A stretch of DNA of 57,542 nucleotides from Pseudomonas sp. GM78 (GTDB taxonomy: Bacteria; Pseudomonadota; Gammaproteobacteria; Pseudomonadales; Pseudomonadaceae): assembly GCF_000282475.1 (NCBI RefSeq), contig NZ_AKJF01000137.1, positions 1 through 57,542 on the forward strand, written 5' to 3'. The notes under the pieces are model-generated. The model saw nothing but the letters and a program-made list of their open reading frames with translations. It was not told the DNA's origin and ran no database searches. This document shows positions 33,620-43,414 of the stretch, in pieces. Positions within the stretch are counted from its first letter, which is position 1. Each line of letters begins with the position of its first letter. Made by a program: the position numbers and the translations under genes.

Positions 33620-33694
33620 CCTACGATTAAAGGTCGATGTTGCTCGTCTAGACACGTGTTCAGTTGCATCCGGGCTAGCTGATTGATACCGCTG

Positions 33695-33925
33695 TCATTC
33701 CGGGGCTTCCTCGACAAGATTGCGAAACACCTTGCCTTCTTTTTCGAACTCCCGCTGCACACCGGTCACCGCGTCACTCAGGCGGATCGACCGGCGACTT
33801 GCCGCGATCGCTTCGATTGCGGCGAACTGGACCACGTTGACGATGGTGCCGCCGGACAGTTCGAAGCGGGCGAGGAGGCTCGCGAGGTGATTACGGCGGT
33901 CCTGCTCCGGAAACGACTCGACTTA
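33695..33925 (-). pseudogene. C-terminal remnant of an AAA+ ATPase gene
   Basis: Read leftward, this stretch gives SFPEQDRRNHLASLLARF, then ELSGGTIVNVVQFAAIEA, then DAVTGVQREFEKEGKVF and a TGA at 33697-33695. This is the lid and C-terminal helix pattern of an AAA+ ATPase. Upstream of about 33925 the likeness stops, and there is no start codon or Walker region, so only about 75 residues of a several-hundred-residue protein remain. It marks a rearrangement at the left end of the island. Confidence 0.65.
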
Positions 33926-34098
33926 CCTCAAATGAGAACGCCCACCTTACCGCGACCAGATACTGGACTTCTTGGGATCGCTATCTATGCTGATAGAGGT
34001 CAATGGGCTTGTAGTCCATGTCACTTAGTAGTCAGGTGATTTGCGAAAGCCTCTGCAAAGGATCGATACTTAATCTTTAGGCTGAGAGGGCCTTTAGC
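33926..34098. other. non-coding gap left of the lectin gene
   Basis: Base composition becomes AT-richer here. No gene, hairpin or clear promoter could be identified, although the lectin gene promoter should lie within it; AGGG and GAGAGGG stretches before ATG 34099 may serve as its ribosome site. Confidence 0.4.
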
Positions 34099-34587
34099 AT
34101 GAAGAAAATCATCTTATTGGCTTTTTGCTTTTTGGCTAATTACTCACAAGCTAATGCCACAGAGTATTTTTTTGTTGTGGCGAAACATAGTGGTAAGTGC
34201 CTTCATCAGCAGGGCGCGACTCAAGGAAATGGAGATGCCATCACGCAATGGAGCTGCGTGAACCAGCCAAACGTGAAACTGGAGAAAATACCAGCAGGCG
34301 ACGGATATTTTTTCTTGAAGTTTCAGCATAGCGGAAAATGTGTTCATCAACAGGGCGCAACTCAAGTAAACGGAGGTGCCATCACGCAGTGGGATTGTGT
34401 AGACCAGCCGAACGTGAAATTGAAACAGATACCAGCAAGTGACGGATATTTTTTCTTGAAGTTTCAGCATAGCGGGAAATGTGTTCATCAGCATGGCGCA
34501 ACTCAAGGAAACGGAGATGCCATCACGCAGTGGGATTGTGTAGACCAGCCGAACGTGGAGTGGAAATTTCAACCTGCACCAGGTTAA
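34099..34587 (+). CDS. secreted ricin-type beta-trefoil lectin with three near-identical repeats
   Basis: A 162-residue protein: signal peptide (MKKIILLAFCFLANYSQANA) followed by three 47-residue repeats, each built as YFF-x6-HSGKC-x-HQ-x-GATQ-x-NG-x-AITQW-x-CVxQPNV. The ITQW element matches the QxW signature of ricin B repeats, and three units make one beta-trefoil, a carbohydrate-binding fold. No enzymatic domain is attached, so it is a free periplasmic or secreted lectin. Two Cys per repeat suggest disulfides. The same-strand membrane protein gene begins 57 bp later. Ligand unknown. Confidence 0.85.
   Translation: MKKIILLAFCFLANYSQANATEYFFVVAKHSGKCLHQQGATQGNGDAITQWSCVNQPNVKLEKIPAGDGYFFLKFQHSGKCVHQQGATQVNGGAITQWDCVDQPNVKLKQIPASDGYFFLKFQHSGKCVHQHGATQGNGDAITQWDCVDQPNVEWKFQPAPG
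34163..34587 (+). repeat. 141-bp tandem repeats within the lectin gene
   Basis: Three units with a 141-bp period (landmark AGGGCGC or its variant at 34211, 34352 and 34493). Units two and three differ at very few bases, unit one is more diverged, implying recent duplication or gene conversion. Confidence 0.85.
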
Positions 34588-34644
34588 AGATACTTCGGTG
34601 TGCAACCGACAACGGGCGTAAGTGTTCCAAGTGGCACTCATTCG

Positions 34645-35250
34645 ATGAGCCGAACAATGGATGAAGGAAACGAAAAAGGTACATGGTGGAAAACCCTTCC
34701 AGGCATTCTTTCTGGAATCGCTGCTGTCATCGCTGCCCTGACGGCCTTGATAGTGACGCTTTCTCAAAATGACCTCTTGGGAGCAAGGAAGCCTTCCAGT
34801 CCCACTGAGGCGACGCCGATCAGTCAGAGCACTCCTGGCAGCCAAGTGCCAGACAACGAATCGGACACAAGAGAGGGATCGTTGTTACCGCCTATTTCGA
34901 CTCTAACCTCATCAAAGGAGCTTTTGCAGGCGCTCCAAAAAGCAAACATACGCAATAGTGTCAGTGGCGGTGATAATACAATGCTTGAATGGCTGAGTGA
35001 TTCGGATCGGCACTATCATCGATTAGCGGAAGGGTGCCTGGTGCTTGTTGGAAACAGGCGCCTGGCCAAAGATGGAGTTGATTTGGATAAAATTAACTAC
35101 TACTACTTGGAGTTGCTTGGCTTGAGGGGTGGGGAAATAATGCCGATTAATCAAAAGATCGATACGCAAAAGTTGGCGAAGGCAATGATTGATGCGTACA
35201 ACAACAAAAATGGCACTCATTCAAATTCATTGTCTGAAATTCTGGAATAA
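34645..35250 (+). CDS. hypothetical membrane-anchored protein
   Basis: A 201-residue protein I do not recognise. A short charged N terminus is followed by one hydrophobic helix (about residues 14-40, WWKTLPGILSGIAAVIAALT and on), a Ser/Pro/Thr-rich linker and a soluble C-terminal domain (LEWLSDSDRHYHRLAEGCLVL). Topology is probably N-in with the C-terminal domain in the periplasm. The start is uncertain: ATG 34645, ATG 34657 and a GTG at 34600 are all possible, none with a strong ribosome site. It follows the lectin gene on the same strand and may be co-transcribed. AT-rich codons set it apart from core genes. Confidence 0.6.
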   Translation: MSRTMDEGNEKGTWWKTLPGILSGIAAVIAALTALIVTLSQNDLLGARKPSSPTEATPISQSTPGSQVPDNESDTREGSLLPPISTLTSSKELLQALQKANIRNSVSGGDNTMLEWLSDSDRHYHRLAEGCLVLVGNRRLAKDGVDLDKINYYYLELLGLRGGEIMPINQKIDTQKLAKAMIDAYNNKNGTHSNSLSEILE

Positions 35251-35373: not shown

Positions 35374-37023
35374 TTAACGACAAGAGCCACAGGATCCCCC
35401 CTCGCGGAGCGCGCCGATGGCTAGAGTCCGCTCAATTTCCAACATAACCCAGCCAGAATTATTATCGTAAAACCCTAGTTCGATCTGCACATCGTTGAAG
35501 TAGCAGAGCATCTGGCCGCTGACGGGCACGGTGAACTCACCACCGTCTTTCATTACCCAAGGGTGGTACTTGTCCACGGTGCCAATGAGGGCGAACCATT
35601 TGGCGTCATCCTTGCGTTTGCCATGGACGAGTGAGGCAGCCCTGTGGGCGACGCTGTCCCAGTCCTCGCCGTCGATACTGCGCGCGATGTACTTGAGATC
35701 GCGTAAGGGTTCGCCAACCCCGGGCACGACGTGGGCTCGGTAACGGACGCCGGCGCGCAGGAACACACCGGTCGGGTTCCAGTATTTTTCGGCGTAGATG
35801 CGCTGAGTGCGTTGCGCCGTGGTTGTACCGTGGGGAAGCTTACCGGGGTTTCGAACAAAGTACTCCACCAGCTTGGGCGGGCGGTAGGTCGGGTCCTCCT
35901 GCCAGCGGCGTAGCACGGAATCATCAATGGTTTCGTTAATGGTGCACAGGGAGCCGGCCGTACCTCCAGACGTGACGATACTGCGGGGTAGCCTGCCGAT
36001 ATCCCGGTAATTACGCTGGTCGCCGTTTTTGATTTCGTCCCAGATGTTGAGGATTTGACCTGCGAAGGCTTTGAAACTGTCGTGAATGGGGTCGTGCCAC
36101 GCGCCAGGGCGGGGCTCGATGGTGTGAGTGAACGCAAGGCCGAGCGCAGTGGCCTTCTGCATCATCCACTGCAGGGTGATATTGGGTAGATCATCGTCCT
36201 GGTAGCCGCCACCAACGTCGGAGTGCGCACCGATAAACCAGCGTTGCTCGTAGCATTCAGTGAAATCGTCAAGTGTTTGCGCTTCCTTTCCCGTCTCGGC
36301 GAAGGCGCGCCACAGGGAGGCCTCGAACATTGGGCGGTGTTCGTCGATGGCGAGGGCATGGTAGCCGTATCCCTGAGCACGTGTGGGTCGCACGTTGTGA
36401 GCGGCGGATTTGCCGCGGTGTGCGTCTTTGTTTTGCAGGGCGTCGGCATCGATGGCGCCAACGGTGTCCCACAGGCCGGCCATACGGATCTTCACCGCAC
36501 GCACGTAGACGTCATCGATGAGGCGGGCCTCCAAACGGTCGGGATGCCAGCCGGGAGGCGCCTCCGCCGGGTGGCCCTGCCAGTAGCGCAATCGCCACAT
36601 GGGGCGGATGACCTCGCTATCCTGCTGCGAAATATCTGCATAGCGGTCGAAAATTTCCTTGGTGCTCCATTCCTTGAGCGTGTCCGGGCGTGCAAGTCCG
36701 CAGATGGCGATCATCTGCACGAGGCTGCGAGCGGCGAACGCGCCGCGGCTGAAGCCGAAGACGTAAATCTCCGTGTCGTCCTGATAATTCTCGACCAGCC
36801 ATTCGTAGCCTTCACGAATTTTGCGGGCAACGCCCTGGCCAAAGATGCTGCCTCGGACGAATTCGCCAACGTCGGTACCGACTCCCGTGATGTATTCCTT
36901 TTTCTGGGGAACACCATTCACGTCTTTTTCCGCGAGCAACCCATAGGTACGCCAGACGTTGGTGCGATCCTTGGGCGTGTTGTCGGTGCCATCAAAAAGC
37001 AGGATGAGACGTAAAGAAGGCAT
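35374..37023 (-). CDS. DUF2235 alpha/beta hydrolase (Tle1-type phospholipase-like)
   Basis: A 549-residue protein of the DUF2235 family, which includes the type VI secretion lipase effectors Tle1. Seen: FDGTDNT (10-16), nucleophile elbow GFSRGA (Ser92), and GAHSDVGGGYQDDDLPNITL with the family's conserved His/Asp. The C-terminal 150 residues have no clear domain. No signal peptide and no PAAR, VgrG or Hcp is present. It is the last gene of the leftward hydrolase operon, 50 bp after the amidase-patatin gene. ATG follows AGGAGACCAGGC. Phospholipase A activity is inferred from family. Confidence 0.87.
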   Translation of the reverse strand: MPSLRLILLFDGTDNTPKDRTNVWRTYGLLAEKDVNGVPQKKEYITGVGTDVGEFVRGSIFGQGVARKIREGYEWLVENYQDDTEIYVFGFSRGAFAARSLVQMIAICGLARPDTLKEWSTKEIFDRYADISQQDSEVIRPMWRLRYWQGHPAEAPPGWHPDRLEARLIDDVYVRAVKIRMAGLWDTVGAIDADALQNKDAHRGKSAAHNVRPTRAQGYGYHALAIDEHRPMFEASLWRAFAETGKEAQTLDDFTECYEQRWFIGAHSDVGGGYQDDDLPNITLQWMMQKATALGLAFTHTIEPRPGAWHDPIHDSFKAFAGQILNIWDEIKNGDQRNYRDIGRLPRSIVTSGGTAGSLCTINETIDDSVLRRWQEDPTYRPPKLVEYFVRNPGKLPHGTTTAQRTQRIYAEKYWNPTGVFLRAGVRYRAHVVPGVGEPLRDLKYIARSIDGEDWDSVAHRAASLVHGKRKDDAKWFALIGTVDKYHPWVMKDGGEFTVPVSGQMLCYFNDVQIELGFYDNNSGWVMLEIERTLAIGALREGGSCGSCR

Positions 37024-37073
37024 GCCTGGTCTCCTTACGAAATGCGGGAGGGGACAACATTCGATGTCTCGTA

Positions 37074-38909
37074 TCAGACACCGCTATCGGGATAGGGAAA
37101 CGCGTTGGGTTTATTCAGCTGGGGATCGACGTATGTGCGTAAAGCCGCATCCGTAACCGCGTATCCCCAATTGATCAATCGTTCCTGCAACTCCTCATCC
37201 AGCCGCTTCAGACGCGTAGCGATGCCGGCCAGCTCCTGAGTGCGCGCAGGTTTGCAGCTGAGAGTGAGTGCGCGACCCGAATAGTGATCGTACGGGGTGC
37301 CTATTCCCCAATACGTTCCCAGGCGTTTGCCGGCATCATCAGGTTTGGCTTGATAGCTCGCTATGAGCGCGTGTTTGCGAAGACTACGCACCTGATTGTC
37401 GATCAGATCCAGGACGCGATAGGCGTGGCGTGGCCAATCGTGTTTAGGCTCTTCCTCTGGTTTTATTTTGGCGCCAGCGTCGCTGACAAGCACCGTTTCG
37501 TAGCGTTTCCAAACGGTCTCCAGGCCCAGGTTGTCATAAACGCCGCCGTCGGCCAGTACGACATCAGAGGTAAAAGGTGGACGTTGCATGTCGTCGCCCG
37601 AGCCAGGTTTAAATGCGGCCGGATGAAGTTCGATGGTCAGCGGTGATAGCACTGGTGGAAAGGCTGAAGAGGCTGCGACCGCCCGGGCGATCGAAAAATC
37701 AGGATTTTCGATGCGGCCAACGCGATAGTCACCCATATAAGGTTTGGAGAAACGCCACAGCACGCCGGATTGCACGTTGGTGGCATTGATTACAAAGCGA
37801 GGGGTATCAGGCAGGGCCTGCAATGTTTCCCCGTGGAAGAGGTACTTGTCATAGGCCGCAGCGACTTTATCCCCAATACTGCCGGGAAGCAGAATGCCGC
37901 CGATGATCGCTTCGGCGTCAAGCGTGCGTCTTGCAAGCTCACGAATGGGCCCGACCACACGGGCCTCGAAGGGCGCCCGAGCACCATCAAAAGGTAGATG
38001 CTTCCAGGCCAGTGCGAGAACCGCGCTGGTGATCGAGCCGCCCGACACGCTCGAAATACGCTGCAGCCCAAAGAGCTGACCGCTTTCATAGAGGCGCCAA
38101 AGGCTTCCCACGTGAAACAGCATTGCGCGGTAACCACCGCCGGATAGACACAGTCCCGCGCCTGACTCCGGGCGACGCGCTGCAGGTTCCGGTTGCTCAC
38201 TCAGTGCGACATTGACGGGCTGTACATTCCTCGTTGGTGCCTCCCCAACATCGGCATGATCCGCCATGATCTCGAACGTCGTATCGCCGTCTATTGCCAT
38301 CGGCTGATTTTCCAGTGCTACAACGGCAGGATCCTGGGCATTGGTTAACTTGCCGGCGGCATCAAATTTTGCCGCCATCAGGTACTCGACCTCGGTCTTT
38401 GTATATGCGGGATCCCAGTGTGTGTTTTCGGGTACATGGCAGTGTCCGAAATGTCCGCCTTTGGCCCAGTTCTCCGTACTGCGCAAATGACCGCCCGGAT
38501 CCTTGCCGTTTTTTGCGGGCTTGGGCAGCCCCGCCGGCCAAACCAACGGGACGTCATGAATCTGCTCGAGCCAACGGCAGAGGCGGGCCAGGTTCTTCAG
38601 CGTCGCTTTGTTTTTGGGTTTACCGGCGAAACCGACAACTTCTATCTGCAGGGCTCGATCTCGGTTGGTTTGTACACCGCCTTCTGCATTGCGTAGCGAG
38701 CGCGCCGCTGTGTCGGTGTCGATATGCTGGTAAATTTTGCTGGCGTCCACCGTGAAGTGCGGGTCCGACCGGTTGGACTTGAACGCGGTAAAGGCGCCCT
38801 CTGCGCTACCACCCTCCGTCGTGTGATGGACAATTTTGAACACGCCGCCCGTGTAGCTCCCGCTGGTACCGGTAATGGGGCGCTGTTCGGCAAAGGGGCA
38901 TTTGGCCAT
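37074..38909 (-). CDS. fusion of a peptidoglycan amidase (Amidase_2/PGRP) and a patatin phospholipase
   Basis: A 611-residue two-domain enzyme. Residues 20-180 form an N-acetylmuramoyl-L-alanine amidase (type 2, PGRP-like): IVHHTTEG with a zinc His (28/29), a Glu near 90, and GHCHVPENTHWDP with His158/His164 as probable zinc or catalytic residues. After a linker (180-248) comes a patatin: oxyanion loop GGGYRA (257-262), nucleophile Ser289 in SSVSGGS and the catalytic Asp454 in LADGGVYDNLGLE. So one protein could cut both the sugar-peptide bond of the cell wall and membrane phospholipids. No signal peptide or transmembrane helix. Its ATG comes four bases past the stop of a 33-codon gene, inside the hydrolase operon. 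Confidence 0.88.
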   Translation of the reverse strand: MAKCPFAEQRPITGTSGSYTGGVFKIVHHTTEGGSAEGAFTAFKSNRSDPHFTVDASKIYQHIDTDTAARSLRNAEGGVQTNRDRALQIEVVGFAGKPKNKATLKNLARLCRWLEQIHDVPLVWPAGLPKPAKNGKDPGGHLRSTENWAKGGHFGHCHVPENTHWDPAYTKTEVEYLMAAKFDAAGKLTNAQDPAVVALENQPMAIDGDTTFEIMADHADVGEAPTRNVQPVNVALSEQPEPAARRPESGAGLCLSGGGYRAMLFHVGSLWRLYESGQLFGLQRISSVSGGSITSAVLALAWKHLPFDGARAPFEARVVGPIRELARRTLDAEAIIGGILLPGSIGDKVAAAYDKYLFHGETLQALPDTPRFVINATNVQSGVLWRFSKPYMGDYRVGRIENPDFSIARAVAASSAFPPVLSPLTIELHPAAFKPGSGDDMQRPPFTSDVVLADGGVYDNLGLETVWKRYETVLVSDAGAKIKPEEEPKHDWPRHAYRVLDLIDNQVRSLRKHALIASYQAKPDDAGKRLGTYWGIGTPYDHYSGRALTLSCKPARTQELAGIATRLKRLDEELQERLINWGYAVTDAALRTYVDPQLNKPNAFPYPDSGV

Positions 38910-38912
38910 GAT

Positions 38913-39014
38913 CTATCTCTCCCGCCAGAGGGCGCCGAGTTCAACGCTCGCGATTTGCGGCGGTAAGCTGGCGGTGGCAAGAAATTGTTTGGCGTGCTCC
39001 AGATCGAAAACCAT
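38913..39014 (-). CDS. 33-residue small protein in the hydrolase operon
   Basis: An ATG at 39014 with GGAG eight bases upstream opens a 33-codon frame (MVFDLEHAKQFLATASLPPQ, ending ALWRER) that stops with TAG three bases before the amidase-patatin ATG. The peptide is soluble, with an amphipathic helix at each end and a Pro-Pro turn. The good ribosome site, tight spacing and its filling of the only large gap in the operon suggest a real gene: a translational coupler, a regulatory peptide or a small inhibitor. No family recognised. Confidence 0.5.
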   Translation of the reverse strand: MVFDLEHAKQFLATASLPPQIASVELGALWRER

Positions 39015-39032
39015 GGTGCTTGCTCCGTCGGA

Positions 39033-40604
39033 TTAAAACACGGTGTACTCAAGATAGAGATCTGTGGAATTCAGAGAGTGTTTGAACGGCGTGTAGTCCG
39101 CATTGAGGGAGTCATCGTTGCGAAACGTTCGCCCTTTGGTGGCGGCCAGGATGGCCTCCTTCAGATGAGGATTAGGCATCTGCCAACCTTTGGCGCCTTG
39201 CTGGTTGCCGAAAGCCTCGTCAGTGGAAATAGCTGCCACCAGCTCTCGGTGAGTCATCAGGTCGAGGCCTTTGTCCTTCAGCGTTGCGTTGTGACTGCCG
39301 TGGTGCCCGACCTTGTAAAAGCGCACAAGCCCGAGAATCTGAGTCGCCGAGAGCTCACGGGTGTCGTCCTTGTAGTTCTGATCGTGCCAAGACAACCAAT
39401 TGCCAACCTGTGCATCGCCAGGAAAAAGCATGAAGGTTTCGTCGGGAAGCTCAAACGCAAGCACCAGGCTCGTATTGTTGGTGTCAGAGTCGAGTTGCAT
39501 AGCAAGCGGGCCGGCGGCACCGAGCCAATCGGAATCGATTGCCCGACGCGATTGATCGCGTCCGTCTCTGTCGGACCCAGCACAGTAGTGCTGATTGAGC
39601 CATCGGAGAATACCGGTGTCGGTGTTTACATCGATGGCGCTCGACGCACTGTCCGCCGCGCGAACCTGGTCTGTACGGATGCGATGTGATCGGTTTGCGA
39701 ACGGCAAGTCGTTATCGGGGTCGTGGGACTCACCGTCGACCAAGCGAAACAGAAGATCCTCAAAGGCCCTGTTATCCAGATACGTCTCTTTCGCCGGACC
39801 CGACGAAGGTTTGTCCTTTTTCAGCTTCTCCCAATCGCGCGGAGGGCCGAGAACAAAGGCCTTCAGTGCTCCAGGAGCGGCGATAACCTGACCGGGTGAC
39901 AGGAATTCCCTGGAGAGCGCCTCAGCTTTGACCTTTTCCATGATGTCGCGGCCTTTAAGCCGCTTGGTTTTGACCGGCGCGGCACCGAGCGCGGCATCGA
40001 CCGGCTCGGCCCCACTGTTTGCAACAAGTGGCCCTAAAAAAGCGTCGAGGCCGGAAAGTGCAACCTGCCGATCGGCGGCAAACAGCGATGGGGTTGGACT
40101 CGCCGCAGCCTGCTGAATGATTTCGGAAAGAGCCGCCAATGCAACCCCGCGCTTGTCGCGATCCTGGCGTAGCTGATTGGCAAAGGCATCGTTGTCATCC
40201 TCGGTCCAGGCCATCCAGAGTTTATTGATGGCAAGGCCGCCGAAGATGATGTCTTGCGCCTGCGAAAAACCAGAGATGTGGTCCCAGTGTTCGTGTGTGA
40301 TGACCAGCAAATCGAGCGAACCTTTTGTCAGTACGCTGCCATCCGCCGCGAAGGTGCCACCTGTCGTCTTGACGATATCGGTAGCAATTTGCCGCATACG
40401 TGCTTCGGCCTGCGCACTGCCCATCAGAATGCCAAAGTCGATCAGGATATGTGCAGGTGGTTCATTGCCGTTGAGCACGCGGATAAGGAAACAATCGCCC
40501 AGAAAGCCGGCATATTCGCGCCCTTGAGCACCCAACGCCCGGTACATGCGTACGATTATCTGGCTCTTCGCGTTAGCGGGGGCGCCTTTCTTTTGTCGAG
40601 TCAT
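39033..40604 (-). CDS. metallo-beta-lactamase-fold hydrolase, ComEC/Rec2-like
   Basis: A 523-residue MBL-fold protein. GDCFLIRV (36-43) and ILIDFG start the fold; the metal motif is THEHWDH (His104, His106, Asp108, His109); later FPGDAQVGNW and KVGHHGSHNAT supply the remaining ligands, in the arrangement of ComEC-type MBL domains. These enzymes act on phosphodiester or nucleic acid substrates, but the long insert (about 150-400) is family-specific, so the substrate is unknown. It is soluble with no ComEC membrane part. Its ATG overlaps the peptidase stop (ATGA), so the two are translationally coupled. Confidence 0.85.
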   Translation of the reverse strand: MTRQKKGAPANAKSQIIVRMYRALGAQGREYAGFLGDCFLIRVLNGNEPPAHILIDFGILMGSAQAEARMRQIATDIVKTTGGTFAADGSVLTKGSLDLLVITHEHWDHISGFSQAQDIIFGGLAINKLWMAWTEDDNDAFANQLRQDRDKRGVALAALSEIIQQAAASPTPSLFAADRQVALSGLDAFLGPLVANSGAEPVDAALGAAPVKTKRLKGRDIMEKVKAEALSREFLSPGQVIAAPGALKAFVLGPPRDWEKLKKDKPSSGPAKETYLDNRAFEDLLFRLVDGESHDPDNDLPFANRSHRIRTDQVRAADSASSAIDVNTDTGILRWLNQHYCAGSDRDGRDQSRRAIDSDWLGAAGPLAMQLDSDTNNTSLVLAFELPDETFMLFPGDAQVGNWLSWHDQNYKDDTRELSATQILGLVRFYKVGHHGSHNATLKDKGLDLMTHRELVAAISTDEAFGNQQGAKGWQMPNPHLKEAILAATKGRTFRNDDSLNADYTPFKHSLNSTDLYLEYTVF

Positions 40605-42685
40605 TCGAAGCTCCTGTGCAGGAAGGCAAATGGCTCAAGATTGGCGCTTACACGTGAGCCAATCGCCTGTCCCGACGTTTTGCCTGTACGGAAGTCACGC
40701 TGGGCAGCCAAGCGTTTGTCGTCGCAAACATTCTTTCTGATGATCCGAATCAGCTTGCCATCGCGCAGGTCAATATGAATGGTCGCGCCGCCGCGGAACC
40801 AGAAGTCAGGGTCACGCGCGAGGACAGCAGTGTCACCGGCATCCGCCTTCTCTTGGTCGATCGAATCGTCGTACCCACGTCGTTTCTGCGTCATCTGGAT
40901 GATGAGTTGATGCGTCTCTTGCCCTTCGGGTCCGGCTCGCCGAGCGATCCGCGCTGAATGCACCTCGAACTTCGGAACCTTGGAAAATTCGCCATTCTCA
41001 TTCGCTTTGCCTGTCCACAATGTAGGGACGTTGGTCAGCGGTGCCTTGCGACGAGGATCATCGAAGGCAAGCAGACGCATGCCGACCAGCTTCTCCCACC
41101 CCTCGTCGAACGCACTGTCTTCCTTGAACCACTCGTGAATGAGTAACTGGTTACGCTGGATTACGCCGACAGCGGCTTCGCGGAGGTTGCGTCGCCCCCC
41201 GCCAGAGGCTCCATGCACACTAGACGTGTGCATGGGCCCGAGTGAAATGGACAGTTTGAGTGTGGCCAACAGTTCGGAGAAGACGTTGCTGAGCCCCTCT
41301 TCGGGATTCCCGCCGGCTTCACCAAACTCGGGGGTCTCAGAAAGATCCGGCTCATCCCATAGCAAGCTGTCAGGTGCCATCGAGATGCAACCGGGCACGG
41401 TGATGCCACGCTTTCTAAAGGCTTCGACGAAAGCGATGCGATAACGCATCGGGTCGTTAGCCACCAGATCAGTATCGGCCGTGATAATTGCCCGCAAATA
41501 TTCGCCAAAGTGCAGGTCAACAGGGGGGGTATAGTCCAGCGCACGCACGCACATGCGAAGCACCTGGTCCGCGGCTCTTCCGGCCTCAACAGCCAAACGG
41601 TCAACGAGTTCTGCAGAGAGATAATCCTGATTGGGTGCGGCACTCGACCGCGCGAGGCGAAAGAGATCAGCAGTCTTATACTCGTAAATGGTGACGAATG
41701 CATCAAAGATGGCAGCAACGAGAAAGCCACCACGCTCGTGCGCTTCGAACGTTTCAGAGAGTTTCTTGGGTGGCTTGATTTCGCCACTGCCTTTCTTATC
41801 GGCCCGGGATGTAGCACCGGCCGATGTTACGGGAGACCCTAGATACTGCAGTGCATAGCGCAACGCCCCGCGGCGTCCCGTAGCGTGACCAAACTGAAGT
41901 GCAAGTCCATTCAACAGGCCCGGCTCGCGCAGCGAACCTTTACTCTGTGCCAGCTGATGCCGTACGACATTCGTCAAACTGAAATGCTGGAGCAGCGCGA
42001 TGATATCGGCAAAAGCCTCATGAAAGGCCAGTGAGTCGAGATTGGTGGATTCGATCGAGCGCTGCCGCATTCCGTGAAGAATCGCATGTGTTGTCTCATG
42101 GGCAACGATGTCTTGCGACAGACAAGTGAAGACCCAGCTACTGGAAGCGGTATCGCCTTCTGGATGCTTGAAGTACCCGAAAAGCAGCGCGCGCTTGCTG
42201 GGGCTGTAATAGGCATTCTTTTCGCGAAGGCCGTGGGGATAGATCCGCAACCGACGTGTGAAGCTCCGATCCGGAGTGTCTTTAGATGCATTCCTGTCGC
42301 CAGCCCACAAGACCACTCGCCCAAGCGCCCGCTCGAAATTACGGATCGTGCGCATCGCAACCGCGAACACCATCTGCTGATGGAACTGTGGGCAACCTTC
42401 GGACGGTGGTAACCCATCTTGAGCCAGCAGAAAGGGCGCGTTGAGATCGACAGGGGCGTAAAAAAGGTCTGAACTGGGATCGTAATCGATCACCTCGAGA
42501 TAGTCGTTAATGGGCCCTGGCTCCAACTGGTCTTCCCAACGTGTTTCCCATGGAAGCTCAATGACCGCGTCATTAATGATCGCAGTCTTCAGTTCGACCG
42601 AAGACTGTGGATCGAAAGCGTATACGCGCAGCCGCCTCATGGGAGGCTTTGGCACCCGTGGAACCAGCTGCTGGATATCCGTCAT
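40601..42685 (-). CDS. thermolysin-like (gluzincin) zinc metallopeptidase
   Basis: A 694-residue protein with the zinc motif HETTH (196-200) and a third ligand Glu223 in FHEAFADI, 22 residues after the second His, as in M4 thermolysin (HELTH...NEAISD). The N-terminal 180 residues and the C-terminal half (from about 300) have no domain I recognise. No signal peptide, which is unusual for M4 enzymes. It is the first gene of the leftward operon; ATG follows GAGG at nine bases. The peptidase call is strong by motif; target and location are unknown. Confidence 0.82.
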   Translation of the reverse strand: MTDIQQLVPRVPKPPMRRLRVYAFDPQSSVELKTAIINDAVIELPWETRWEDQLEPGPINDYLEVIDYDPSSDLFYAPVDLNAPFLLAQDGLPPSEGCPQFHQQMVFAVAMRTIRNFERALGRVVLWAGDRNASKDTPDRSFTRRLRIYPHGLREKNAYYSPSKRALLFGYFKHPEGDTASSSWVFTCLSQDIVAHETTHAILHGMRQRSIESTNLDSLAFHEAFADIIALLQHFSLTNVVRHQLAQSKGSLREPGLLNGLALQFGHATGRRGALRYALQYLGSPVTSAGATSRADKKGSGEIKPPKKLSETFEAHERGGFLVAAIFDAFVTIYEYKTADLFRLARSSAAPNQDYLSAELVDRLAVEAGRAADQVLRMCVRALDYTPPVDLHFGEYLRAIITADTDLVANDPMRYRIAFVEAFRKRGITVPGCISMAPDSLLWDEPDLSETPEFGEAGGNPEEGLSNVFSELLATLKLSISLGPMHTSSVHGASGGGRRNLREAAVGVIQRNQLLIHEWFKEDSAFDEGWEKLVGMRLLAFDDPRRKAPLTNVPTLWTGKANENGEFSKVPKFEVHSARIARRAGPEGQETHQLIIQMTQKRRGYDDSIDQEKADAGDTAVLARDPDFWFRGGATIHIDLRDGKLIRIIRKNVCDDKRLAAQRDFRTGKTSGQAIGSRVSANLEPFAFLHRSFE

Positions 42686-43414
42686 CGTTTCGGTCCTCGT
42701 TGGCGAAAAGGAGGAATAAACGCTATTTCACCCTGGTCCAACCGCCGATAAATCTTCAACTGCATCAGCTAGCCGGTAACTTCTACTGGAGCAAGAGTGG
42801 TCCACCTATTTAGAGTTAAAGTCTAGAGCCAGAGGGAGATCCAGTTCATAGTTGAAAACTGAACTTGCGCTAAAGTATTTTTGCGCAAACCAATTACACC
42901 TACAATCCGTTGAATCCACTTGTGAAGGGCCTTGAACAGAAGTTTAGCCACGCAAAATGAGGCTGCTTCTATTAAAAGTGAGTTACGCTTATTACGAAAA
43001 GGTATTGAGAGTGCTAGCCGGCACTGGTAGCGACTGCCCATAGTTCAAATGCGCCGGCAAAAACATTAAGTTTTTTTGGCGCCAGTCTTTTGGCAGAAAG
43101 TGACTTGTAGAGTTTTGCGTACAAGAAACGAATAACGTATTTAACGACATAATTGGGTCGTACTTATTTTTGGTTTTTTCGGGATTCGTTTTTATTGTCG
43201 TGGCGGGAGTGAAGGAAATCGAACAAGCGAATTTTTATGCCAATTGCATTAGCTTTATGATACCTGGGCTTCACCTTAAAGCCTTGAGTTATTATCTGGT
43301 TCAACCTCAAAAATGGAGTTTAAATATATTACCTTCCTTGCCCCGCTACTTTTATTATTGCTTGCAGCCAATACAGCGCCATGTTGATGCTCGTTTGAGC
43401 CTGTGAACACCCGT
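42686..43414. other. AT-rich gene-poor stretch between the hydrolase operon and pcaIJ
   Basis: About 730 bases with lower GC than flanking core genes. Short open frames exist on both strands but none has a ribosome site, recognisable sequence or credible codon use. The left end (42686-42830) must hold the promoter of the hydrolase operon, but I see no confident -35/-10. The remainder looks like decayed sequence at the right border of the island. Confidence 0.6.

What the first reader, a model, noticed from the sequence alone, without database searches (positions are those of the whole stretch)
35374..42685. Five-gene operon of unlike hydrolases: candidate undescribed system
A single leftward unit encodes a thermolysin-like zinc peptidase (HETTH...E), a ComEC-like MBL hydrolase (HEHWDH), a 33-residue peptide, a peptidoglycan amidase-patatin fusion and a DUF2235/Tle1-type lipase. 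Coupling is tight (ATGA overlap, then gaps of 18, 3 and 50 bp). Active-site residues look intact in all four enzymes. Their bonds differ: peptide, phosphodiester (probable), cell wall, phospholipid. None has a signal peptide, and there is no VgrG, PAAR, Hcp, holin or clear immunity gene. The block lies between a decayed AAA+ gene and an AT-rich gap, so it looks mobile. A cell-killing system (anti-phage suicide, delivered toxin set) or an enzymatic kit for scavenging lysed cells are both possible.
Basis: partly seen in the sequence, partly recalled or inferred. Interest (0 to 1): 0.85.

Follow-up and report, generated by a model that had tools for sequence, protein, structure and literature searches.

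The report
Metalloprotease–nuclease pair with envelope-lytic enzymes
A movable block in a Pseudomonas genome carries a protein-cutting enzyme paired with a probable DNA-cutting enzyme, a pair kept together across many bacterial phyla, plus enzymes against membrane lipids and cell wall; it looks like a switch for cell self-destruction, perhaps against viruses, but nothing has been tested at the bench.

Summary
Four intact enzyme genes lie at the stated coordinates. The fifth, a 33-residue ORF, is the remnant of a ~260-aa gene ("X260") intact in relatives. The core is a two-gene unit: a thermolysin-like metalloprotease of an unnamed family and an MBL-fold hydrolase with a large variable insert. 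The MBL gene directly follows the protease in 78 of 80 genomic loci; the other two end at contig ends. In 199 genomes of the genus, separate searches with the two proteins hit the same 8 genomes. Lipases (patatin, DUF2235) and peptidoglycan hydrolases come and go around the pair. The flanks are unrelated in the nearest relative, so the block is mobile. Best reading: a proteolytically gated suicide module, a metalloprotease version of the nuclease–protease pairs shown in Hachiman, AVAST and Canu (Science 2025), with added membrane- and wall-cutting enzymes. A controlled sample of chromosomal flanks showed no excess of defence genes. The sensor is unknown. Novelty: new variant of a known kind. 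That paper mentions other protease families in a supplementary figure I could not read, so part of this may be recorded there.

The parts
40601..42685 (-). Metalloprotease, 694 aa; thermolysin-like HExxH...E core near residues 190-234; family without a Pfam or PADLOC match and without a meaningful NCBIfam match
   Evidence: profile aligns to neutral protease, aureolysin and thermolysin at the HExxH/EAxxD region, weak E 0.21-0.98; H196, E197, H200, E223, D227, H316 in 73 of 73 rows
39033..40604 (-). MBL-fold hydrolase, 523 aa, predicted pro-nuclease; overlaps the protease gene by 4 bases
   Evidence: metal motifs in 70 of 70 rows and 232-311 residues between HxHxDH and the metal Asp (comparison); first ~100 columns match LmuA-type MBLs
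38913..39014 (-). 33-aa ORF: deletion remnant of the ~260-aa X260 gene, not an independent gene
   Evidence: X260 intact in L025, L028, L029, L031, L032, L044
37074..38909 (-). Amidase_2 (endolysin-like, residues ~26-167) fused to Patatin (residues ~253-466), 611 aa; two separate genes in Sphingomonas relatives
35374..37023 (-). DUF2235 / Tle1-like phospholipase, 549 aa
   Evidence: (PF09994 E 3.6e-59)
42686..43108 (-). Upstream leader shared with the nearest relative (P. fluorescens PS862); carries the operon's 5' control region by inference
   Evidence: match 39018-43108, 91.5%; no sigma-70-like site on the operon strand
35417..43108 (.). Extent of the mobile block: DNA similarity to the nearest relative stops at both ends

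Best explanation
The block is a mobile, proteolytically gated suicide module. Step 1 (inferred): an unknown sign of infection or damage activates the cytoplasmic M4-like metalloprotease. Step 2 (inferred, by analogy with HamM, Avs1a and CanC): the protease cuts loops in the large insert of the MBL protein, which then degrades DNA. Step 3 (inferred, weaker): in this lineage the amidase-patatin fusion and the DUF2235 lipase, possibly also held inactive until cut, attack the inner membrane and then the cell wall, so that the infected cell dies. Shown here: the protease-MBL pair is a conserved two-gene unit, active-site residues are intact, the lipases and wall enzymes are exchangeable additions, and the block sits between unrelated flanks in its nearest relative.
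For: MBL directly downstream of the protease in 78 of 80 genomic loci, the other two ending at contig ends, and in 17 of 18 plasmid loci. Gap -94 to +45 bp in 91 of 93 pairs. All 28 plasmid records with an MBL match also hold the protease beside it. Separate searches of 199 genus genomes hit the same 8 genomes, at adjacent places. Protease and MBL distances correlate, Mantel r 0.79, null maximum 0.13 in 2000 shuffles, 70 pairs. MBL motif spacing 232-311 (median 267, n 70) against 77, 77 and 81 in three ComEC proteins and 162-189 to the first Asp-motif match in five LmuA-type MBLs (about 217 by the aligned Asp in one), with two poorly conserved stretches inside the insert. The published mechanism rests on two gating insertions. 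Protease swap: an S. meliloti plasmid has a 59%-identical patatin and a generic MBL-fold gene around an S8 subtilase. Lipase or DUF2235 immediately beside the pair in 34 of 97 loci; wall enzymes nearby in others. Unrelated flanks in the nearest relative.
Against: No assay. No sensor gene recognised in or beside the block. PADLOC hits in chromosomal flanks showed no excess over control regions. X260 is deleted here and in PS862, so the module may be incomplete in this lineage. The MBL's link to known gated nucleases is limited to the N-terminal ~100 columns and to weak HMM hits. One plasmid locus (L020) has a broken protease and no MBL hit. Fifteen of 43 plasmid records with a protease match had no MBL match at 1e-5; the 12 of these that are listed are 27-39% identical to P0001. 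The MBL of the S. meliloti swap locus is not recognised by the MBL profile of this family. The distance correlation was not corrected for host phylogeny.
Confidence: 0.55

Rival explanations
1. Delivered antibacterial toxin set: amidase-patatin and Tle1-like lipase are secreted effectors, with the protease and MBL as processing partners or further toxins.
For: PF09994 is named for T6SS Tle1 effectors; amidases and patatins are common secreted effectors (recalled); no signal peptide seen, as expected for T6SS cargo.
Against: No VgrG, PAAR or Hcp family among the ten neighbouring ORFs scanned (the rest of the window was not scanned); no lipase is the immediate neighbour in 63 of 97 loci; the pair occurs in Chloroflexota and Deinococcota, not known for T6SS (recalled). 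No immunity gene was identified.
Confidence: 0.15
2. Scavenging or stress-hydrolase kit: cytoplasmic enzymes set free when the cell lyses, feeding on debris.
For: Hydrolases for four kinds of bond; other degradative genes (polysaccharide lyase, S1/P1 nuclease, tyrosinase) near some loci; no excess of defence genes in chromosomal flanks.
Against: Co-inheritance of protease and MBL with close gene coupling, patchy distribution (8 of 199 in the genus) and mobility fit conflict genes better; no secretion signals seen.
Confidence: 0.12
3. The pair is a regulatory protease-MBL unit with a non-nuclease substrate (for example nucleotide or lipid hydrolysis) and no role in cell death.
For: MBL folds have many substrates (recalled); the profile also touches Apyc1 (E 0.0024), a nucleotide hydrolase (recalled).
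Against: The best profile matches are Cas14 and CPSF-type chains, nucleic-acid-cutting MBLs, and defence MBLs; frequent partners are lytic enzymes.
Confidence: 0.12
4. Degenerate relic: with X260 deleted, the block is no longer functional in this genome.
For: X260 lost here and in PS862.
Against: All four remaining reading frames are open with conserved catalytic residues, and X260 directly follows the MBL gene in only 6 of 98 loci plus one weaker match, so it is not needed for the core.
Confidence: 0.06

Closest known systems
Nuclease-protease pairs of Hachiman (HamMAB), AVAST (Avs1), Lamassu, DRT and Canu (PMC12799240, Science 2025)
   Same: A protease gene beside an MBL-fold hydrolase gene; long inserts in the MBL between its metal motifs; transfer of the pair; protease-first order as described for Canu; protease type exchanged.
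   Different: Protease is M4-like and, in the window, not fused to a known sensor; the MBL insert is long; lipases and peptidoglycan hydrolases accompany the pair in part of the loci. Words beginning with metalloprotease, thermolysin or lipase do not occur in the main text; fig. S2 was not readable.
LmuA hydrolase (PADLOC PDLC03854), 6A-MBL (NF058524), Avs1a (NF041809)
   Same: P0002 matches their N-terminal MBL part (E 1.3e-9, 6e-7, 7e-4).
   Different: Far below the NCBIfam cut-offs; no helicase, STAND or SMC gene beside the block.
Thermolysin family M4
   Same: HExxH + E + D pattern; weak profile alignment at that place; M4 match at E 0.0095, below cut-off, in a distant relative.
   Different: No signal seen; sub-threshold similarity; C-terminal part without a match.
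Tle1/DUF2235 phospholipases (PF09994)
   Same: P0004 matches at E 3.6e-59.
   Different: No T6SS genes among the ten neighbours scanned.
Patatin effectors of defence systems such as CapV (recalled) and bacterial gasdermins (recalled)
   Same: Membrane damage as the outcome of an immune switch; protease activation in the gasdermin case.
   Different: Neither was compared by name here, beyond the PADLOC scan, which gave no match for P0003, and the PDB profile search with X260, which gave none; the patatin is fused to a wall amidase.

Membership tests
Protease-activated (gated) MBL nuclease pair | Protease gene adjacent to an MBL hydrolase gene, inherited together | tested here: met
Protease-activated (gated) MBL nuclease pair | MBL with insertions between metal motifs relative to ComEC | tested here: met
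   232-311 residues (n 70) against 77, 77 and 81 in three ComEC proteins
Protease-activated (gated) MBL nuclease pair | Insertions cover the active site | not testable with these tools
   structure prediction switched off
Protease-activated (gated) MBL nuclease pair | Protease cleaves the MBL and switches on DNase activity | not testable with these tools
   needs biochemistry
Protease-activated (gated) MBL nuclease pair | Protease is trypsin-like or caspase-like (the types shown experimentally) | tested here: not met
   HExxH metalloprotease; so this would be a variant, not one of the types shown
Lamassu / AVAST / Hachiman | SMC, STAND or helicase sensor gene in the operon | tested here: not met
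   none in the operon or among ten neighbours; an SMC-like gene stands upstream in L006 and an NB-ARC gene in L091
6A-MBL and Avs1a families (NCBIfam) | Score over the curated cut-off | tested here: not met
   28.9 of 220 bits and 18.5 of 420 bits
Thermolysin M4 peptidase | HExxH...E zinc site | tested here: met
   73 of 73 rows
Thermolysin M4 peptidase | Pfam M4 score over cut-off | tested here: not met
   no Pfam match for P0001; 16.8 of 22.4 bits in L108
T6SS effector cluster | VgrG, PAAR, Hcp or adaptor nearby | tested here: not met
   ten neighbouring ORFs scanned, none matched
Defence-island gene | Flanks enriched in known defence genes | tested here: inconclusive
   no excess seen in 88 chromosomal flank proteins against 80 control proteins, a taxonomically mismatched control; defence-like annotations near 7 of 14 annotated plasmid loci, without a control

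The most novel reading that the evidence does not exclude
A widespread, undescribed class of protease-triggered self-lysis systems: one metalloprotease switches on a DNase, a phospholipase and a peptidoglycan hydrolase, so that genome, inner membrane and wall are destroyed together. The X260 protein, found with trypsin- and CHAT-type proteases elsewhere, would be an exchangeable membrane-acting part with a holin- or gasdermin-like role.
Probability: 0.25. Interest if true: 0.88.

Novelty: new variant of a known kind. Interest (0 to 1): 0.7.

Why it matters
If true, proteolytic activation in bacterial immunity extends to a further protease class and from DNA to the whole envelope; [quoted passage not shown] The pair gives a clear, testable unit, with a protease family that no library searched here names, found in at least eight phyla. 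The swapped lipases and wall enzymes offer a natural experiment in how immune effectors are exchanged.

Tried and rejected
Rejected: the 33-aa ORF as a peptide gene. Rejected: the 544-aa ORF downstream in L040 as a partner; it has no Pfam family, looks like an antisense artefact, and matches only a short stretch at 33656-33928 of the window. The insertion-site test by right-flank DNA in 19 relatives was not informative: the matches were partial. The defence-island test showed no excess. Its limits: 88 flank proteins came from 44 genomic loci, two per locus, from loci with at least six eligible ORFs; the control was 80 of the 100 proteins drawn, from 16 of 20 regions that I placed at arbitrary coordinates in genomes of the window's order, while the flank loci come from many phyla; the tool gives family tallies, not totals of members, and showed 25 of 27 and 25 of 96 families. 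A Pfam tally of 148 neighbouring genes, from which patatin and DUF2235 genes had been taken out beforehand, found no further dominant partner. X260 matched no family in a meaningful way in Pfam, none in PHROGs and no PDB chain. An X260 scan of viral contigs was not possible with that alignment. The protease gave one partial match in viral contigs, so a phage origin is not indicated. Family searches in 185 class genomes: Avs1a gave matches in 107, none over its cut-off; LmuA gave matches in 134; many in both are short or ComEC-sized. Five LmuA-type MBLs were used for spacing and six for the profile comparison. Literature: the searches listed no paper that I recognised as describing an M4-type protease with an MBL and a lipase. 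Of PMC12799240 I read parts 1-3 of 6 and searched the main text for words; its supplements could not be read. Other papers were seen only in search listings.
Full report
What is there. The window is a whole contig (C137) of a 7.29-Mb genome in 235 contigs. The genome is of the same genus as G186, whose protease place (contig position 1078227) is that of the P. baltica locus L025, so the host is a Pseudomonas. The minus strand carries, 5' to 3', a 694-aa protease, a 523-aa MBL-fold protein, a 33-aa ORF, a 611-aa Amidase_2-Patatin fusion and a 549-aa DUF2235/Tle1-like protein.

The 33-aa ORF is a remnant. In P. baltica (L025) and in Sphingomonas and Rubellimicrobium loci (L028, L029, L031, L032, L044) a ~260-aa gene, here called X260, directly follows the MBL gene; in five of these six (not L029) an amidase follows. 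The window ORF begins like the start and ends like the end of L025's protein. About 0.7 kb of L025 has no counterpart in the window, and PS862 has a slightly larger loss at the same place. The X260 profile scores the window ORF at 13.3 bits, E 0.025, below the inclusion line but the best after the members.

The protease. P0001 has no Pfam, PADLOC or PHROGs match and only a chance-level NCBIfam one. A profile of 73 relatives aligns to neutral protease, aureolysin and thermolysin at the HExxH...EAxxD site, with weak E-values of 0.21 to 0.98. H196, E197, H200, E223, D227 and H316 are present in 73 of 73 rows. A number of relatives are 1100-1240 aa; Pfam finds an N-terminal S8 subtilase in the two long proteins tested, and records annotate two more as S8.

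The MBL protein. The strongest named matches are to LmuA (E 1.3e-9), 6A-MBL and Avs1a, all partial; in the PDB the best are Cas14 and CPSF-type chains, followed by many other MBL proteins. HxHxDH, the Asp and the HH pair are present in 70 of 70 rows. Between HxHxDH and the Asp lie 232-311 residues (median 267), against 77, 77 and 81 in three ComEC proteins; in five LmuA-type MBLs the distance to the first Asp-motif match is 162-189, and in one of them (L160) the aligned Asp gives about 217. Inside this insert, residues ~161-220 and ~281-340 are poorly conserved and partly gap-rich, around a better conserved middle; a third gap-rich stretch, residues 81-100, lies before the motif. Two insertions over the active site are what makes HamM and Avs1a pro-nucleases, and are predicted for CanC (PMC12799240, parts 1-2). 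Whether these inserts cover the active site could not be tested.

The pair is a unit. The MBL gene directly follows in 78; the other two loci, L030 and L063, end at a contig end. Of 18 plasmid loci with a protease, 17 have the MBL; the exception, L020, has a protease broken in two frames. Gaps lie between -94 and +45 bp in 91 of 93 pairs whose MBL passed a strict score. In plasmids, all 28 records with an MBL match are among those with a protease match (43, of which 40 are listed), side by side; 15 protease records had no MBL match, and the 12 of them listed are 27-39% identical. In 199 genus genomes, separate searches found the protease in 8 and the MBL in the same 8, at adjacent places; in 145 genomes of the order the protease was found in 1, the window's own. 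Pairwise distances of the two proteins correlate (r 0.79; maximum of 2000 shuffles 0.13; 70 pairs); common descent of the hosts contributes to this and was not removed. The 73-row tree spans eight phyla by record title (quick method); plasmid loci add Deinococcota and Cyanobacteriota, the latter being the broken L020.

The other enzymes are exchangeable. A patatin or DUF2235 gene is the immediate neighbour in 34 of 97 loci examined (30 patatin, 4 DUF2235), upstream or downstream, sometimes divergent; among genomic loci alone 25 of 79 (L029 was dropped by my gene caller). L046 and L047 are near-duplicates, and the plasmid locus L003 was fetched through its patatin. On the protease tree the patatin label changes at least 16 times (labels set by me). 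Amidase and patatin are separate neighbouring genes in L028, L031 and L044, both present but apart in L032, and fused in Pseudomonas. Other loci have a GH25, an M15 peptidase, an N-acetylmuramidase or a cell-wall hydrolase nearby (L016, L022, L059, L021). The full amidase-patatin protein occurs in 2 of 199 genus genomes, both with the pair; ten more have only a patatin-like match, one of them with the pair but on another contig. So patatins of this kind also occur without the pair. In S. meliloti (L009) a 59%-identical patatin stands before an S8 protease and an MBL-fold gene; that MBL is seen by Pfam but not by this family's profile.

X260 elsewhere. In S. fredii X260 precedes a GDSL lipase-Amidase_3-M15 fusion and a trypsin-like protease; in R. 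leguminosarum it follows a CHAT/TPR-S gene and one other gene and precedes a TIR protein. Five of seven members have a central hydrophobic stretch (19-residue mean hydropathy 1.87-2.26). This suggests a membrane-acting part in protease-driven systems. Against it, distant relatives, some in tandem, sit away from any homologue of the four window proteins in the window's own genome, which weakens any single role.

Mobility. Similarity to PS862 runs from 35417 to 43108 at 91-95% and stops at both ends. PS862 carries a second, 48%-identical protease with its own MBL on the same contig (L041).

Defence context. Near 7 of 14 annotated protease-bearing plasmid loci there are CBASS, DUF1837 plus helicase, ThiF, SIR2 or CHAT genes (L003, L004, L005, L007, L008, L018, L019); no control was made. 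In a sample of 88 chromosomal flank proteins from 44 loci, PADLOC matches (among them RdrA, PtuA, PtuB, SngA) showed no excess over 80 control proteins, which happened to include Zorya and type I specificity genes. This does not help the immune reading.

Verdict. A conserved metalloprotease-MBL pair is shown. That the protease activates the MBL as a DNase, and that the lipases and amidase complete cell lysis, is inferred from analogy and anatomy. It may work like a gated nuclease-protease pair; it is not one of the types shown in print, since the protease is not trypsin- or caspase-like and no known sensor is present.

Noticed in passing
window 34099-34587 (+): Ricin-type beta-trefoil lectin ORF (E 8.5e-26) just outside the block, with an unassigned 216-aa ORF at 34600-35250.
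   Followed up: no
   Followed up: partly
window 33656-33928: Short stretch similar to DNA 3' of the module in P. jinjuensis (L040); identity unknown.
   Followed up: partly
window 39033-40604 (P0002 residues 329-438): Weak PHROGs match to a phage tail protein family, phrog_7043, E 1.8e-7; not explained.
   Followed up: no
L024 and L041 (P. fluorescens PS862, one contig): Two different copies of the module on the same contig, protease genes about 29 kb apart.
   Followed up: no
L175 5986-12027; L177: X260 followed by a GDSL lipase-Amidase_3-M15 fusion and a trypsin-like protease in Sinorhizobium: a parallel set with another protease (L177 judged by its X260 and ORF layout only).
   Followed up: partly
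L176 2445-11351: CHAT/TPR-S gene, one further gene, then X260, then a TIR-domain gene.
   Followed up: no
L189 6059-7785; L190 6844-8432 (own genome, contig C81): Tandem pairs of distant X260 relatives, plus a single one at L189 12449-13099, with no homologue of the four window proteins beside them.
   Followed up: partly
L006 6469-9000; L091 3863-6949: An SMC-like ATPase gene 24 bp upstream of the protease (Hymenobacter) and an NB-ARC/TPR gene upstream (Desulfovibrio): possible sensors.
   Followed up: partly
L023 1468-7431: Cyanobacterial plasmid row of trypsin-like peptidase, GH19, TPR, an amidase 66% identical to the window's amidase domain, and a murein endopeptidase.
   Followed up: no
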